Origin: Myxococcales bacterium
GTDB taxonomy: Bacteria; Myxococcota; UBA727; VGSZ01
Length of the DNA stretch: 61,970 nt
Direction: 5' to 3'
Assembly (NCBI GenBank): GCA_023248635.1
Contig: JAHFED010000036.1
Span: forward strand, 1-61,970
The position numbers were made by a program, and so were the translations under genes. Shown here piece by piece: positions 49,264-55,423 of this stretch. Every line of letters begins with the position of its first letter. Position 1 is the stretch's first letter. The notes below the pieces were generated by a model. It worked only from the letters and a program-made list of their open reading frames with translations, was not told the DNA's origin and searched no databases.

Positions 49264-49416
49264 GCGATCTCCTCGGCGGCGTCCACACGTTGAGCCCTGA
49301 CAACGGCTCAAACATCGGCACTTTGACGTCGTCAGCCACTCAACGACCAACAAACCCTTCACCCCCGCCAGGTGAAGCTGGCAGGATATCCCTCCGCACC
49401 AGCGAGGGAGACACCA

Positions 49417-50853
49417 GTGGTCCCGGACAGCTTGCAAAAGCTCATCGAAGACGGTGTCATCGACGACGTCAAAACGCAGCTGATGAGCGGCAAAGAGGCG
49501 GCGGTCTACGTCGTCGAACGCCACGGCGAGCTGCTGGCTGCCAAGGTCTACAAGTCCCGCGAGCAACGCACCTTCAAGGCGACGGCGACCTACACCGAGG
49601 GCCGCAACCAGACCCGCAACTCGCGGGACAAGCGCGCCATGGGCAAGCGCACGGCCTGGGGCAAGGAGCTCATCGAGTCCAGTTGGCGCGACATGGAGTA
49701 CCAGGCCCTCTTTCACGCCTTCCACGCCGGCGTGCGCGTGCCCGAGCCCGTGCTCTTATACGAAGACGTGCTGCTCATGCAGCTGCTCGTCGACGACAAC
49801 GGCGTACCCGCTCCGCGCTTGGCGGATTTCGATCTGCCGGCTGAGGTCGCTGAGCTGCTGCACCGAGAAATCTACGGGCAGGTGCGACTGCTGCTGCAGG
49901 TCGGCAAGATCCACGGCGACCTTTCGGCCTTCAACATCCTCATCGCCGAGGGCGGGCCTACCATCATCGACATGCCCCAGGTCGTCGACGCCAGCGGCAA
50001 CAACCAGGCGGCCGAGATCCTGCGCCGCGATCTGGCCAACGTGACCGAGCACCTCGCGCGCTTCGATGCCCGCCTGCTGCGCTTTCGCGACTGTGGCCTC
50101 GTGCTCTGGCAGCACTACCAACGGGGGACCCTGCACCTCGCCATCGATCCCGAAGAGGGCTCGGCGCGATCCAGCGGACCCAGCGGAGGACGACGGGTGC
50201 GCGACGCCGAACGTGGACGCATGGGGCGAGGGGGTGGACGCGCCGCCAACGCTCCCCGCGATCCGCGCGGGCCCCCGCCCGATCTGCGCCCCGCCCACGC
50301 CCGTGGACCCCAACCCGGGACGACGTCGACGTCGGCGGAGGGGCCACGCCGTCCCGATCTCCGCCGACCCCCAGACACCAGCGAGGGTCGACCCGATCTG
50401 CGGCGACCCCCTGAGCCCCGCGACGAGCGTCGACCCGATCTGCGACGACCCAGCGACGAGCGCCGACCCGATCTGCGGCGTCCCCCGAACGAGGATCGAC
50501 GACCGGATGTGCGCACGCCGACGACGAACGAGGATCGGCGCCCCGATGTCCGCCGGCCGCCCAGCGACGAGCGGCGACCCGATCTGCGACGACCACCGCC
50601 CACCGACAGCGGACCCGGCGCCCGACCTCCGCTGGCCAACGAAGATCGACGACCCGATCTCCGACGACCACCGATCGAGGATCGGCGACCCGATCTGCGA
50701 CGGCCGTCCCCCGATGGGCAGCGTCGTCCGGCCCCCGACATCGAAAGACGCCCCGCCCGTCCCCAGCCCTCGCGGCCCCCCGAGCCGCGGCGCGAAGAAG
50801 ACGCGCCCCGCTCCGGTGACGACGGCGATCAAGCCCCGCGCCGTCCCCGCTGA
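49417..50853 (+). CDS. RIO-type protein kinase with long Arg/Pro-rich repetitive tail
   Basis: 478 aa from GTG 49417 (GAGGGAG upstream; GTG 49372 also possible). RIO1-like core, residues ~1-245: LMSGKEAAVYVVERHG nucleotide loop, KVYKSREQRTFKA with the ATP-site Lys, catalytic loop KIHGDLSAFNILI, and metal loop TIIDMPQVVDAS. All core catalytic residues are present. Residues ~285-455 carry about nine copies of an RRPDLRRPP-type unit separated by Asp/Glu-rich bridges, unlike normal RIO kinases. The tail is strongly basic with acidic spacers and could bind RNA or ribosomes; RIO1 itself acts in 18S maturation in eukaryotes and archaea. Bacterial RIO function is unclear. Confidence 0.87.
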   Translation: MVPDSLQKLIEDGVIDDVKTQLMSGKEAAVYVVERHGELLAAKVYKSREQRTFKATATYTEGRNQTRNSRDKRAMGKRTAWGKELIESSWRDMEYQALFHAFHAGVRVPEPVLLYEDVLLMQLLVDDNGVPAPRLADFDLPAEVAELLHREIYGQVRLLLQVGKIHGDLSAFNILIAEGGPTIIDMPQVVDASGNNQAAEILRRDLANVTEHLARFDARLLRFRDCGLVLWQHYQRGTLHLAIDPEEGSARSSGPSGGRRVRDAERGRMGRGGGRAANAPRDPRGPPPDLRPAHARGPQPGTTSTSAEGPRRPDLRRPPDTSEGRPDLRRPPEPRDERRPDLRRPSDERRPDLRRPPNEDRRPDVRTPTTNEDRRPDVRRPPSDERRPDLRRPPPTDSGPGARPPLANEDRRPDLRRPPIEDRRPDLRRPSPDGQRRPAPDIERRPARPQPSRPPEPRREEDAPRSGDDGDQAPRRPR

Positions 50854-50929: not shown

Positions 50930-51069
50930 CAAACCGCGCCAGCGGTTTGAACATCCAAACTTCAAGACGCGCCAGCGTCTTGAACATCCAAACTTCAAAA
51001 CTCGCGCGCTAGCGTCTGGAACCAGCAGAACTTCAAGACGCGCCAGCGTCTTGAACATCCAAACTTCAA
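50930..51069. repeat. Four tandem copies of the CAAGACGC/GCGTCTTG hairpin repeat
   Basis: Hairpins at 50930-50949, 50963-50982 and 51034-51053, with a decayed copy at 50997-51033; each is followed by AACATCCAAACTTC. The first copy has arms CAAACCGC and GCGGTTTG where the others have CAAGACGC and GCGTCTTG: both arms changed together so that pairing is kept. Confidence 0.9.
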
Positions 51070-51110
51070 CTGACCGATCCACGCACAGGCGCACGCTGGC
51101 GCACCGAAAG

Positions 51111-51341: not shown

Positions 51342-53339
51342 ATGCGCTCGTCTCCACGTCCCTTGCGCCTCGCTCCGATCGTGCTGCTGCCGCTGTCGGC
51401 GGCGGTCGGCTGCTTCGACTTCACCCTGGTCGGTGAACCGGGCGGCGAAGGAGCTCCGACCGCGTCGCTGGTGCTCTCGGCCACCGCCGGCCAGGCGCCC
51501 CTCGAGCTCGTGCTCGACGCCAGCGCCTCTCTGCCTTTCAAAGAAGGCGATGCCCTGCAGTTCGACTTCGACTTCGACGGCGACGGCACCTTCGAGATCG
51601 AGCGCTCCGACGACGCCATCGCCGACCACAGCTACAGCTCCGCCGGGTCCTTTGCGCCGCTGGTGCGCGTGCGAGGCTCCGACGGCCGCTACGACGTCGC
51701 CGACGCCGCTCTCGAGGTCTCGGCCCAAAATCCCCCCCGCACCGCCGACGTCGACGTCGACTCCGATCACGATGGCCGCATCACCGGCGCTGACGAAGCC
51801 GTCGAAGACGAGTCCGAGGCCGCCTTCTTCGGCAACGTCGACGACGACAACGGCGACGGCGAGCGCGATCGCGACGACAACGTGCTCGACGACGACGACG
51901 ACGACACCTTCCCGATCGTGGTCCGACAGGTCCGCGAGCTGGGGGCCTCGCAGGTGTTTGTGCAGGTGAGCCCGGCCATCGCTGCCACCCGCACGCGTCT
52001 CTGGCTCGACGGCGCCATCCTCACCGACGCGAGCAGCGACCGGGCCCAAGTGCAAGGCGCGGGTGCTGCGGACGTTGAGCTGCGACTCGAATCCCTCACT
52101 GGCCGCACCAGCGATTGGGATGGACGCGTCGAGATCACGGTCACGGTCGAAGACGGCGGCGACGTCGTCAGCAGCGACACCGTGCACCTGCGAGCAGCGC
52201 CGGTGCTCTTTCCCGACAACCTGCAAGCGCCCCGGCAGCTCTTCGTGATGGACATCCCCGACGGCGAAGACAGCAACCAAGCGCTGGTCGGTGCCTTTCG
52301 CGACAGCCTCCCCGAAGGCGTCGACCTCTACGAGCTGAACGCCGACGACTACTTCTACGACCGCTGGGTGCAAGACAGCTGGGAGGTGGGCACGCAGCTG
52401 GTCCCCGACGGCGACGGCGGCCAGCGCGAGATGATCACGGCCATGCAGACCGAGCGCTCTTACGGCGGCCAGGGGCTCGATGCCTTCGTTCCGGGCGAGT
52501 GGATCTCTCAGGGCCGCGGCTTCTACTACCCAGGTGGCGACGAGACCGCGCACAACTACGGCGGCAACCTCGAGACCTCGCCACCGACGGCGTCGGATCC
52601 CTTTGGTCGCATGCTCTTTGGTGGAGGCACCCAGGCCCTCAGCGGGGCGCGCAACGTCGACAGCATGAACGAAAACCAGGTCTCCTTCCTCAACGCGCAG
52701 GAGCTGCAGGGCCCGGCCATCGAGCTGTCGTCTGAGTGGCTCGAGGTCGGCCACATCGACGAGATTCTGCAGTTCATCCCCGATCTCTCACCCGACGAAG
52801 GCGGCCATGCGTTCAAGATCGCCATCGCTTCGCCCCGGCTCGCCCGCGACGTGCTCGTCGGATTGCGCGAAAATGGTCAAGGCGGCGCCACCGTCTTCGC
52901 CGGCCGTCGCCGCAGCTTCAGCGTCGACGAAGTCCTCGACGACGAAGAGTTCAACGCGCTCAACGAGCTGGCCCAGGCCCGCATCGAGGGTGTGCAGGTG
53001 AAACTGAAGGCGACGCTGCACCTCAGCGACGACGACTTCCGACCCGTACCCGTCTTCTTCGAGGACCAGGGCGACGGCTTGGTGGCGGCCTTCAACCCCG
53101 GCGTCCAGAACCTCGTCACCATGGGAACACGCTTGTTCGCGCCCGATCCCGAGGGACCCGTGGTCAACGGCGAAGATGCCTGGCAGGCGGCGACCCTGGC
53201 GTCTCTCGCCGACACCGACCTCGACGTCGTCTTCGTCGACGTCTTCCAGAGCTATCACGAGCTTTTGGGTGAGGCCCACTGCGGCACCAATGTTGAGCGC
53301 GCTCCCTACGCCACGGCGTGGTGGACGGTGGAGAAATGA
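51342..53339 (+). CDS. Lipid-anchored eukaryotic-type protein-arginine deiminase (PAD)
   Basis: 665 aa; ATG 51342 with GAGG eight bases upstream. Lipobox AVGC (C24), so exported and membrane anchored. Residues ~37-125 form a PKD-like Ig domain (DFDFDGDGTFE). Residues ~135-190 are an Asp-rich calcium region (DVDSDHDGRITG) that matches the PAD middle domain. The catalytic domain (~285-665) keeps DRWVQDSWEVG (Asp345), GGNLETSPP, FGRMLFGG, WLEVGHIDEILQFIP (His471, Asp473) and LLGEAHCGTNVERAP (Cys647), corresponding to PAD4 Asp350, His471, Asp473 and Cys645. It should convert peptidyl-arginine to citrulline in a Ca-dependent way; substrates unknown. Coupled to the HEAT-repeat gene. Confidence 0.9.
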   Translation: MRSSPRPLRLAPIVLLPLSAAVGCFDFTLVGEPGGEGAPTASLVLSATAGQAPLELVLDASASLPFKEGDALQFDFDFDGDGTFEIERSDDAIADHSYSSAGSFAPLVRVRGSDGRYDVADAALEVSAQNPPRTADVDVDSDHDGRITGADEAVEDESEAAFFGNVDDDNGDGERDRDDNVLDDDDDDTFPIVVRQVRELGASQVFVQVSPAIAATRTRLWLDGAILTDASSDRAQVQGAGAADVELRLESLTGRTSDWDGRVEITVTVEDGGDVVSSDTVHLRAAPVLFPDNLQAPRQLFVMDIPDGEDSNQALVGAFRDSLPEGVDLYELNADDYFYDRWVQDSWEVGTQLVPDGDGGQREMITAMQTERSYGGQGLDAFVPGEWISQGRGFYYPGGDETAHNYGGNLETSPPTASDPFGRMLFGGGTQALSGARNVDSMNENQVSFLNAQELQGPAIELSSEWLEVGHIDEILQFIPDLSPDEGGHAFKIAIASPRLARDVLVGLRENGQGGATVFAGRRRSFSVDEVLDDEEFNALNELAQARIEGVQVKLKATLHLSDDDFRPVPVFFEDQGDGLVAAFNPGVQNLVTMGTRLFAPDPEGPVVNGEDAWQAATLASLADTDLDVVFVDVFQSYHELLGEAHCGTNVERAPYATAWWTVEK

Positions 53340-53341
53340 TC

Positions 53342-54085
53342 ATGAAGAAGCTCCCCCTGTTGTTGGCCGTTCTCGTCGCTGCCGCCGCCCACGCCGGCCC
53401 GACGCCGACGGTGAAGCTCAAGGGCATCGATCCCGCGGTGTACCTGCAGAAGCGCAACCACCGCCCCGACGTCAGCGGCGAGCTGCGCCGACTGCCCGCC
53501 GGCGTCGCCGTCGCCGTCCTCGACGATCCCATGGCCTTCGTCGTCGACGACAGCGCCTATCCAGCCGGCATCAAGGCCGACGAGCGTCAGAAGCTGCGGA
53601 CCGTCGAAGTGCGCGCGTTGTTACAAGGGGCGCTGACGTCGTTGGCCCAGCGCCACGATCTGCGGGCCTTCGATCTGCTGCGCAGGCACGTCGCCCACGA
53701 CGACGACGCCGTCGCCGCCCTGGCCGCCGAGCGCCTCGGTGAGCTCGATGATCACCGCGTCGTCGAAGCCCTCGCCGGGCTGGTCAAGGATCAGACCCTG
53801 CGACTCGAAGTGCGCGCGGCAGCCTGCGCCGGTCTGGGGCACGTGCGCAGCCAAGAGGCTCTCGAGGCCCTGCTGCCAGCGTTGTCGTCGTCGAACAAGG
53901 ACGAGATCCGCACCGCGGCGCTGCGGGCGCTGGGTTCGCTGACCTCGCGCTGGGCCTGGGAAGCGCGCGACGACGTGGCCACCGGCGACCACCTGCGGGC
54001 CGCCGCTCTGCGCGCCGTGCAAGCCGTAGAAGGCGACGCCGACGTCGTCGCCGTGCGCGATGAGATGCTCGCCCTCCTCCGTTGA
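53342..54085 (+). CDS. Exported HEAT-repeat protein
   Basis: 247 aa. Signal peptide MKKLPLLLAVLVAAAAHAG. Mature part consists of alpha-helical HEAT/PBS-lyase-like repeats from ~residue 90 on: VAALAAERLGELDDHRVVEALAGLV, LRLEVRAAACAGLGHVRSQEALEALLPAL, IRTAALRALGSL. ATG 53342 is chosen because the GGAG is eight bases upstream; an ATG at 53336 would overlap the deiminase TGA. Adjacent gene order implies co-expression with the arginine deiminase, so it may be a scaffold, inhibitor or substrate receptor for it. The latter is inference. Confidence 0.82.
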   Translation: MKKLPLLLAVLVAAAAHAGPTPTVKLKGIDPAVYLQKRNHRPDVSGELRRLPAGVAVAVLDDPMAFVVDDSAYPAGIKADERQKLRTVEVRALLQGALTSLAQRHDLRAFDLLRRHVAHDDDAVAALAAERLGELDDHRVVEALAGLVKDQTLRLEVRAAACAGLGHVRSQEALEALLPALSSSNKDEIRTAALRALGSLTSRWAWEARDDVATGDHLRAAALRAVQAVEGDADVVAVRDEMLALLR

Positions 54086-54127: not shown

Positions 54128-55423
54128 ATGCGCGTTGCGGTGCTGGTCGTCGTCGTTATTGTGCTGATCGGCTGTGCTCCACCCCCACCCGACGGCGACG
54201 GCCCAGGCGAAGGTGAAGGAGAAGGCGAAGGCGAAGCAGGCCCCACCGGCTTTGACGTCGACGTCGACGCGGATGAAGTGCCCTGCGAGCGGCTCGAGGC
54301 CTGGCCCATCCTGGTGCCCTCGCCGGCCCATCCCTGGGTGCTGCACTTGCGCGACGAGAGCGAGCGGGCCCTGGGCGACGCCATGATGGCCGACCTGGAC
54401 CTGGCCTGGGACCAAGAGCGCGCCCTCGGCTTCCCCGATGCCCCCGGCGACGAAGGCGTTTGCGGCGACGACGGCCTCTTTGATGTCTTCCTCTTTGCTG
54501 GCAGCGAGCGCGCCTACGTCGACTCCATCGCCGACATCCCGGCGACCCCCTTCAACGACGTCGCTCCTTTCCTGGTCATCGACTACGAATTCTGGCCCCC
54601 CTCGACCATGGCCCACGAGCTCAACCACGCGATGCAAGCCTCGTGTGATTGGAACGAGACCGCCTTCATCTTCGAAGCCACGTCCCAATTCATCGAGGAA
54701 GCCCTCTTCGACGACGACGACATCTATCGCGAGGTGCTGGTCGACTTTCAGAGTCAAGCGGATCGAGCCCTGGATTTCGACGACGGCTACGCAGGCTATT
54801 ATATGTATGGAGCAGCCCTTTATTTGTTCTATCTTGATGAGGCCGTTTTCTCCGATGATCCAACCTGGCTCGGTCGCATGTGGCTGGGAGCACGCTCGAC
54901 AGAAAATCCCGCAGGCCTCGGCGGGGAGCCTGACGTAGAAGACGTGCTCGAGGACATGCTGCAAGAGCAAAGATCGATGTCATTCTTTGATTCTGTTGTC
55001 GAGTTTGCGCGCTGGAGATATTATCTGGCGGGCCACGACGACGGCCGTCATTTCAGCGAGGCGGCCGAGCTCTTGGACGATGCCTTGGTGCCCGAGCTCT
55101 CCCTCGCTGTGGGCGGCGAGCAAAGCGCTGCGTTGTCGGAGCTGGGAACCCTGTACCTGGCGTTGAGCGGGGCTGCCGACGGCGACGTCCATGTCACGGT
55201 CGGGGGTGAGCTCGACGGCGCCACCTTGATTGCTCAAGCCTTGCCGGGGCTCGATGGCAGCGACGGGCAACGCGTCGACGGTTCCAATGTCTTCACCGTG
55301 AGGCTGTCGTCGGCGGGCACGCGCGTCTTGGCGCTGACCTTGTTGCCACCGCCCGAGCGCGCCGATCCCGACGTCGTCGAGCGGCCGCGGCGGCCCTTGA
55401 GCATCACTGCTTCGACGCCATAG
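54128..55423 (+). CDS. Lipoprotein with gluzincin-like metallopeptidase motif and (EG)n linker
   Basis: 431 aa. Lipobox LIGC (C16), Pro-rich start and a short Gly-Glu linker (residues ~27-36). Zinc motif H163-ELN-H167, with a likely third ligand Glu183 in IFEATSQFIEEALFDDD, the gluzincin layout. Tyr/Phe-rich helical middle (YYMYGAALYLFYLDEAVF) and C-terminal beta-sandwich. It recalls the MXAN_6640-type putative metalloproteases of myxobacteria, though I cannot confirm this by search. Codon use in the middle part (nt ~54780-55030) is visibly less GC-rich than in its neighbours. Convergent with the methyltransferase gene, end to end. Confidence 0.78.
   Translation: MRVAVLVVVVIVLIGCAPPPPDGDGPGEGEGEGEGEAGPTGFDVDVDADEVPCERLEAWPILVPSPAHPWVLHLRDESERALGDAMMADLDLAWDQERALGFPDAPGDEGVCGDDGLFDVFLFAGSERAYVDSIADIPATPFNDVAPFLVIDYEFWPPSTMAHELNHAMQASCDWNETAFIFEATSQFIEEALFDDDDIYREVLVDFQSQADRALDFDDGYAGYYMYGAALYLFYLDEAVFSDDPTWLGRMWLGARSTENPAGLGGEPDVEDVLEDMLQEQRSMSFFDSVVEFARWRYYLAGHDDGRHFSEAAELLDDALVPELSLAVGGEQSAALSELGTLYLALSGAADGDVHVTVGGELDGATLIAQALPGLDGSDGQRVDGSNVFTVRLSSAGTRVLALTLLPPPERADPDVVERPRRPLSITASTP

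What the first reader, a model, noticed from the sequence alone, without database searches (positions are those of the whole stretch)
51342..53339. Exported bacterial protein-arginine deiminase of the eukaryotic type
All PAD catalytic positions are present at matching spacing: DRWVQD Asp345, GHIDE His471/Asp473, and HCGTN Cys647, against Asp350, His471, Asp473 and Cys645 in human PAD4. The Ca-binding DVDSDHDG stretch of the middle domain is kept as well. It is a lipoprotein with a PKD domain, so it would citrullinate proteins outside the cytoplasm. Citrullinating enzymes of this family are uncommon in bacteria; P. gingivalis uses an unrelated one. It could alter host, prey or own surface proteins.
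Basis: partly seen in the sequence, partly recalled or inferred. Interest (0 to 1): 0.75.

Follow-up and report, generated by a model that had tools for sequence, protein, structure and literature searches.

The report
Exported bacterial citrullinating enzyme with partner
A bacterium of the phylum Myxococcota makes an intact, exported version of the human arginine-to-citrulline enzyme, and right behind its gene lies a second exported protein that accompanies this enzyme in two bacterial phyla and appears to be undescribed.

Summary
Window 51342-53339 encodes a 665-aa lipoprotein of the Pfam PAD family (E 6e-67). The predicted structure matches human PAD4 (Foldseek E 1.3e-47). Asp345, His471, Asp473 and Cys647 fall on PAD4 Asp350, His471, Asp473 and Cys645.

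It is not the animal type. PAD_N is absent, replaced by a PKD-like domain. The Ca2 site and the calcium-switch Asp are lost; Ca1 and Ca3-5 ligands are kept. Bacterial PADs are known, and 54 of 195 Myxococcota genomes tested carry one.

What is new is the next gene, 2 bp downstream (53342-54085): an exported protein with its own N-terminal region followed by HEAT repeats. In Myxococcota, 51 of 52 whole-length relatives lie beside a PAD: 49 directly downstream, 2 with the order reversed. Relatives also follow PADs in Planctomycetota. None occurs in 40 cyanobacterial, actinobacterial, Paenibacillus, archaeal and other PAD loci. I found no description of this pair.

Best reading: a surface or periplasmic PAD acting together with a co-expressed HEAT-repeat partner (substrate adaptor, regulator or inhibitor). 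Activity and binding are untested; a structure prediction of the two in one chain gave no confident contact.

The parts
51342..53339 (+). PAD lipoprotein gene (665 aa plus stop)
   Evidence: PF03068 E=6e-67; AlphaFold model residues 134-665 mostly pLDDT>90, pTM 0.80; Foldseek top hit human PAD4 E=1.3e-47
51342..51413 (+). Lipoprotein signal peptide and lipobox AVG-C24
   Evidence: Read from the sequence; pattern scan finds the lipobox here and in most Myxococcota/Planctomycetota PADs but not in cyanobacterial ones
51483..51686 (+). PKD-like domain (residues 48-115) in the place of PAD_N
   Evidence: PF00801 16.5 bits, below cut-off; above cut-off in relatives L005, L009, L026, L031
51741..52166 (+). 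PAD middle domain (residues about 134-275) with the Ca3-5 ligands N165, D167, D169, D176, D179, D187, D188, E250
   Evidence: Profile and residue alignment to PAD4
52167..53324 (+). PAD catalytic domain (residues 276-661)
   Evidence: PF03068 match
52374..52376 (+). Catalytic D345 (PAD4 D350)
52752..52760 (+). Catalytic H471 and D473 (same numbers in PAD4)
53280..53282 (+). Nucleophile C647 (PAD4 C645)
53342..54085 (+). PAD-linked HEAT-repeat protein (247 aa), signal peptide MKKLPLLLAVLVAAAAHA, motif GIDPAVYLQKR, then HEAT repeats; starts 2 bp after the PAD stop
   Evidence: PF13646 HEAT_2 E=9e-14; whole-length relatives lie beside PAD in 51 of 52 cases in Myxococcota

Best explanation
The gene encodes a catalytically complete, calcium-binding peptidylarginine deiminase anchored as a lipoprotein outside the cytoplasm. 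It would convert arginine residues of proteins in the periplasm, at the cell surface or in the surroundings to citrulline by the PAD mechanism: Cys647 attacks the guanidinium, with D345, H471 and D473. It lies in a two-gene operon with an exported HEAT-repeat protein that most likely works with it, binding the enzyme or its substrates through the repeat surface and the conserved N-terminal GLxPExYxxxR region. Shown here: homology, predicted fold, complete active site, export signals, operon-like layout, and conserved linkage across two phyla. Inferred: that it deiminates protein arginine, that calcium is needed, and that the partner binds it. The substrate is unknown; own surface proteins or prey proteins are both possible.
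For: Family and fold. Active site and calcium ligands. Lipobox here and in relatives. Partner directly downstream; found in 32 of 39 testable Myxococcota/Planctomycetota and related loci, against 0 of 40 cyanobacterial, actinobacterial, Paenibacillus, archaeal and other loci. In 195 Myxococcota genomes, 51 of 52 whole-length partner matches lie beside a PAD, two of them upstream of it (G106, G141), so the link survives a change of gene order. In 8 further genomes (seven Planctomycetota and one unclassified bacterium) each holds exactly one whole-length partner match, and the PAD loci that brought those genomes in carry the partner directly after the PAD. Distances of PAD and partner correlate, r=0.85, none of 2000 permutations as high. 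The partner has signal-peptide-like starts in 32 of 37 cases.
Against: No activity has been measured. The Ca2 site, the switch Asp and PAD4 R374 are missing, so regulation and substrate handling must differ from human PADs. AlphaFold on a natural read-through chain of L026 PAD plus partner folded both well (mean pLDDT 92.8), but pTM was 0.65 with a disordered linker, giving no support for a fixed contact; only 5 rows of that alignment were paired. One genome of the same family (G003) keeps the partner with no PAD, and some PADs lack the partner (G005:C8, G098, G144:C104, G158). No PAD-partner fusion was seen. The partner profile was built from PAD neighbours; at least 15 of its rows come from the genomes then searched. 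Correlated distances are also expected from simple co-inheritance.
Confidence: 0.7

Rival explanations
1. The PAD is an active exported enzyme, but the HEAT protein is only a co-transcribed neighbour with an unrelated envelope function.
For: Co-inheritance in an operon does not prove contact; one genome keeps the partner alone (G003); the one-chain structure prediction shows no confident interface.
Against: Whole-length partners are almost never found away from a PAD (51 of 52), the pair is kept across two phyla and two deep PAD clades, and adjacency survives reversed gene order (G106, G141).
Confidence: 0.22
2. The HEAT partner is an inhibitor or immunity-like protein that shields the cell's own exported proteins until the PAD meets a target outside.
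For: A protein-modifying enzyme made with an exported repeat protein in the same operon fits an enzyme/inhibitor pair; HEAT-type repeats are protein-binding scaffolds (alphaRep binders match the profile).
Against: No direct evidence. Some genomes keep an intact PAD without a detectable partner (G005:C8:149626, G098, G144:C104).
Confidence: 0.2
3. The protein no longer deiminates proteins: a pseudoenzyme or a binding protein built on the PAD fold.
For: Dead paralogues exist in this order (L017/L132x has lost Asp, His, Asp and Cys); the window protein lost the Ca2 site and the calcium switch.
Against: All four catalytic residues, the Ca1 ligands and the substrate residues W342, R372 and V469 are kept.
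Confidence: 0.1

Closest known systems
Human and animal PAD1-4 (PADI), Pfam PF03068/PF08527
   Same: Same fold over middle and catalytic domains (TM-score 0.72-0.76 to PAD4), same catalytic residues, Ca1 ligands and most Ca3-5 ligands
   Different: No PAD_N; PKD-like domain instead; lipoprotein; Ca2 ligands, switch Asp388 and Arg374 lost; HEAT partner gene
Cyanobacterial PADI (clade Ai of Cummings et al. 2021, PMC8826395)
   Same: Bacterial, same catalytic machinery; a Cyanothece enzyme was shown active and calcium-dependent in that paper
   Different: Cyanobacterial enzymes keep the Ca2 ligands, have no lipobox in the scan and no HEAT partner
Two-domain PADs of actinobacteria and proteobacteria (outside clade Ai, PMC8826395)
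   Same: No PAD_N, Ca2 site lost, Ca3-5 site kept: the class the window protein belongs to
   Different: Actinobacterial loci lack the HEAT partner; the paper as searched here mentions no Planctomycetota, Myxococcota, secretion or gene neighbours
Porphyromonas gingivalis PPAD
   Same: Exported bacterial protein deiminase
   Different: Unrelated family (general knowledge: PF04371, T9SS cargo, no calcium requirement); the window protein matches PF03068 and not that family
HEAT/alphaRep repeat proteins (PF13646)
   Same: C-terminal half of the partner
   Different: No NCBIfam model fits the partner above its cut-off, and matches to solved chains lie in the repeat part

Membership tests
PAD family (PF03068) | Catalytic domain with Asp, His, Asp, Cys | tested here: met
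   E=6e-67; D345, H471, D473, C647 aligned with PAD4
PAD family (PF03068) | PAD fold | tested here: met
   AlphaFold pLDDT>90 over PAD_M and PAD_C; human PAD4 best Foldseek hit, E=1.3e-47
PAD family (PF03068) | Middle domain with Ca3-5 site | tested here: met
   8 of 9 ligand positions checked are kept; Pfam PAD_M itself does not match this member but matches 39 of 58 members of the alignment
PAD family (PF03068) | Calcium-dependent citrullination of protein arginine | not testable with these tools
   Needs an enzyme assay
Animal/cyanobacterial PAD type (clade Ai) | PAD_N domain | tested here: not met
   Profile match to PAD4 starts at its residue 113; the N-terminus is signal peptide plus PKD-like domain
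Animal/cyanobacterial PAD type (clade Ai) | Ca2 ligands E351, D369, S370, N373 | tested here: not met
   S346, Q369, T370, G376
Animal/cyanobacterial PAD type (clade Ai) | Calcium-switch Asp (PAD4 D388, PAD2 D389) | tested here: not met
   G391 in the window; Asp in many Myxococcota and Planctomycetota relatives
Animal/cyanobacterial PAD type (clade Ai) | Groups with human PAD4 in a tree | tested here: not met
   Window PAD sits in a 9-row clade (support 100) of mainly Myxococcota, sister to Planctomycetota (99); human PAD4 is in another clade (quick tree)
P. gingivalis PPAD family | PF04371 match | tested here: not met
   Only PF03068 and a weak PKD match at E<=1
Bacterial lipoproteins | Lipobox Cys after a short hydrophobic signal | tested here: met
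   AVG-C24, same in relatives; localisation not tested
PAD-linked HEAT protein (proposed here) | Whole-length profile match incl. N-terminal region, beside a PAD gene | tested here: met
   186.7 bits over model positions 6-245, 2 bp after the PAD stop

The most novel reading that the evidence does not exclude
Exported bacterial PADs of Myxococcota and Planctomycetota form a two-protein citrullination system in which a dedicated HEAT-repeat subunit recruits substrates or controls the enzyme, taking over roles that PAD_N and the Ca2 switch play in animal PADs.
Probability: 0.35. Interest if true: 0.7.

Novelty: new variant of a known kind. Interest (0 to 1): 0.52.

Why it matters
Why bacteria have PADs is an open question; the evolutionary study found here (PMC8826395) treats them mainly as the source of the animal enzymes. 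A conserved exported partner gives a genetic handle: deleting either gene in a cultured myxobacterium and looking for citrulline in envelope or prey proteins would test what the enzyme is for. The residue table also qualifies a published statement: many non-cyanobacterial PADs keep the calcium-switch Asp although they lack the Ca2 site, and Paenibacillus, Vibrio and Methanophagales sequences carry the clade-Ai-like Ca2 residues.

Tried and rejected
A single-sequence scan of genome contigs found nothing; the alignment-based one worked. The one-chain PAD-partner model (read through the natural stop of L026) gave no confident placement; I do not use it as evidence of binding. Short ORFs after the PADs of L044, L051, L062 and L066 look like distant partners, but hhalign gave probability 24% (E 8e-4), so this is left open. 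Upstream neighbours (RIO kinase, LTD protein) have no counterpart near other PADs. No PAD was found in phage records, and only four distant actinobacterial hits in plasmid records. PADLOC gives only generic HEAT matches for the partner and none for the PAD. A PPAD-like or small-molecule arginine deiminase reading was rejected because only PF03068 matches. Six literature searches found nothing on PADs with HEAT proteins or on PADs of myxobacteria; most subscription journals are outside that library.

Full report
WHAT IS THERE. The ORF at 51342-53339 (+) encodes 665 residues, preceded by a ribosome-binding-like AGAGG. Pfam assigns PF03068 at E=6e-67. phmmer against solved structures lists human PAD1, 4, 3, 2 and 6. 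A profile of 58 bacterial relatives matches human PAD4 from residue 113 to 661 at E=2.6e-167, that is the middle and catalytic domains but not PAD_N. AlphaFold gives mostly pLDDT>90 for residues 134-665; the first 130 residues score low, but the alignment had almost no rows there. Foldseek returns human PAD4 as best hit, E=1.3e-47, TM-score 0.72/0.76. Chance is excluded.

RESIDUES. D345, H471, D473 and C647 align with PAD4 D350, H471, D473 and C645. Substrate residues W347, R372 and V469 are kept; R374 is not. Ca1: Q344, E348, L410 and E411 are kept (F407, to my knowledge a backbone ligand, is G407). Ca3-5: N165, D167, D169, D176, D179, D187, D188 and E250 are kept; PAD4 E170 is V181. Ca2 is lost (S346, Q369, T370, G376) and the switch D388 is G391. 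The ligand lists of PAD4 are from general knowledge; the switch residue and the statement that sites 2 and 4 are exclusive to the animal/cyanobacterial clade are from PMC8826395. In the present set the switch Asp is present in many Myxococcota and Planctomycetota PADs that lack Ca2 ligands, while close relatives of the window vary (L019 Asp, window Gly). L073 keeps N, S, N of the Ca2 site. Paenibacillus, Vibrio and Methanophagales sequences have cyanobacterial-like Ca2 residues. So the published two-type division is less sharp than stated.

EXPORT. C24 follows a positively charged and hydrophobic stretch ending AVG. A pattern scan finds lipoboxes in most Myxococcota and Planctomycetota PADs, sometimes before PKD domains, and not in cyanobacterial, Paenibacillus or Methanophagales ones. 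The PKD match in the window protein is below Pfam's cut-off but is above it in several relatives.

PHYLOGENY AND DISTRIBUTION. The window genome is a 6.5-Mb Myxococcota assembly, judged from its nearest named records, which are metagenome bins labelled Myxococcales and Deltaproteobacteria. PADs occur in 54 of 195 genomes of the phylum and in none of 14 control genomes. In a quick maximum-likelihood tree the window PAD joins mainly Myxococcota sequences (9 rows, support 100), sister to Planctomycetota (18 rows, 99). A second Myxococcota clade has actinobacterial PADs inside it, and human PAD4 falls with cyanobacterial, Paenibacillus, Vibrio and archaeal-bin sequences. It is a PAD, but not of the animal type.

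THE PARTNER GENE. The next gene starts 2 bp after the PAD stop, with GGAG inside the end of PAD. It encodes a 247-aa protein with a type-I-like signal peptide, a conserved GLxPExYxxxR segment and HEAT repeats (PF13646). Of the loci around PADs in named genomes, 32 of 39 testable Myxococcota, Planctomycetota and related loci carry it directly downstream; 40 other loci (cyanobacteria, actinobacteria, Paenibacillus, Vibrio, archaeal bins and others; 650 kb) have no match at all. The other genes of the window neighbourhood have no counterpart beside PADs elsewhere.

Whole-genome test: the partner profile was run on 195 genomes of the phylum. Matches that cover most of the model (67-278 bits) number 52; 51 lie beside a PAD, 49 directly downstream and 2 upstream (G106, G141), with one orphan in G003, a genome of the window's family that has no PAD. 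Generic HEAT proteins score 63 bits or less and cover only the repeats. At least 15 of the 52 contributed to the profile, so at most 37 are out of sample. Eight further genomes, seven Planctomycetota and one unclassified bacterium (L073), each hold exactly one whole-length match. PAD and partner distances correlate, r=0.85, as expected if they travel as a unit. PADs without a partner exist, including second copies and dead or decayed ones.

HOW IT PROBABLY WORKS. The enzyme chemistry can be taken from PAD4 with good confidence because the active site is complete. Calcium is likely bound at Ca1 and Ca3-5; outside the cytoplasm calcium is usually available, so a tight switch may not be needed (inference). 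The partner most likely binds the PAD or its substrates: HEAT and alphaRep repeats are protein-binding scaffolds. I could not show contact: a natural read-through chain of PAD plus partner from L026 folded both parts well but gave pTM 0.65. Whether it is adaptor, regulator or inhibitor is open.

VERDICT. The conserved, apparently undescribed HEAT partner and the lipoprotein layout make it a new variant of that kind and make the function of bacterial PADs testable.

Noticed in passing
L017 / L132 (G005:C8:313055-314200): A PAD paralogue with all four catalytic residues lost (DRWVGN, GVGG, no Cys) but Ca3-5 ligands kept: a pseudoenzyme in the same order, reminiscent of inactive human PADI6.
   Followed up: partly
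L127 (G003:C11:353005-353676): Orphan PAD-linked HEAT protein in a genome of the window's family that has no detectable PAD.
   Followed up: partly
L074-L076, L065, L080, L042: PADs in Methanophagales bins, Paenibacillus and Vibrio with cyanobacterial/animal-like Ca2 ligands; archaeal-bin origin could be contamination.
   Followed up: no
window 54128-55423 (+): Exported lipoprotein-like protein with a HELNH motif (possible zinc metalloprotease) 42 bp after the partner gene; no Pfam match; a homologue lies about 6 kb downstream of the PAD in L025.
   Followed up: no
window 49372-50853 (+): RIO-type kinase with a long repetitive Arg/Pro/Asp-rich tail (RRPDLRRPPD...), just upstream of the PAD; not conserved near other PADs.
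   Followed up: no
window 50940-51075: Repeated stretch (cttcaagacgcgccagcgtcttgaacatccaaacttcaa) in the intergenic region upstream of the PAD gene.
   Followed up: no
L008 and L015 (G005): PAD lipoproteins with long (DG)n tandem tracts after the lipid Cys.
   Followed up: no
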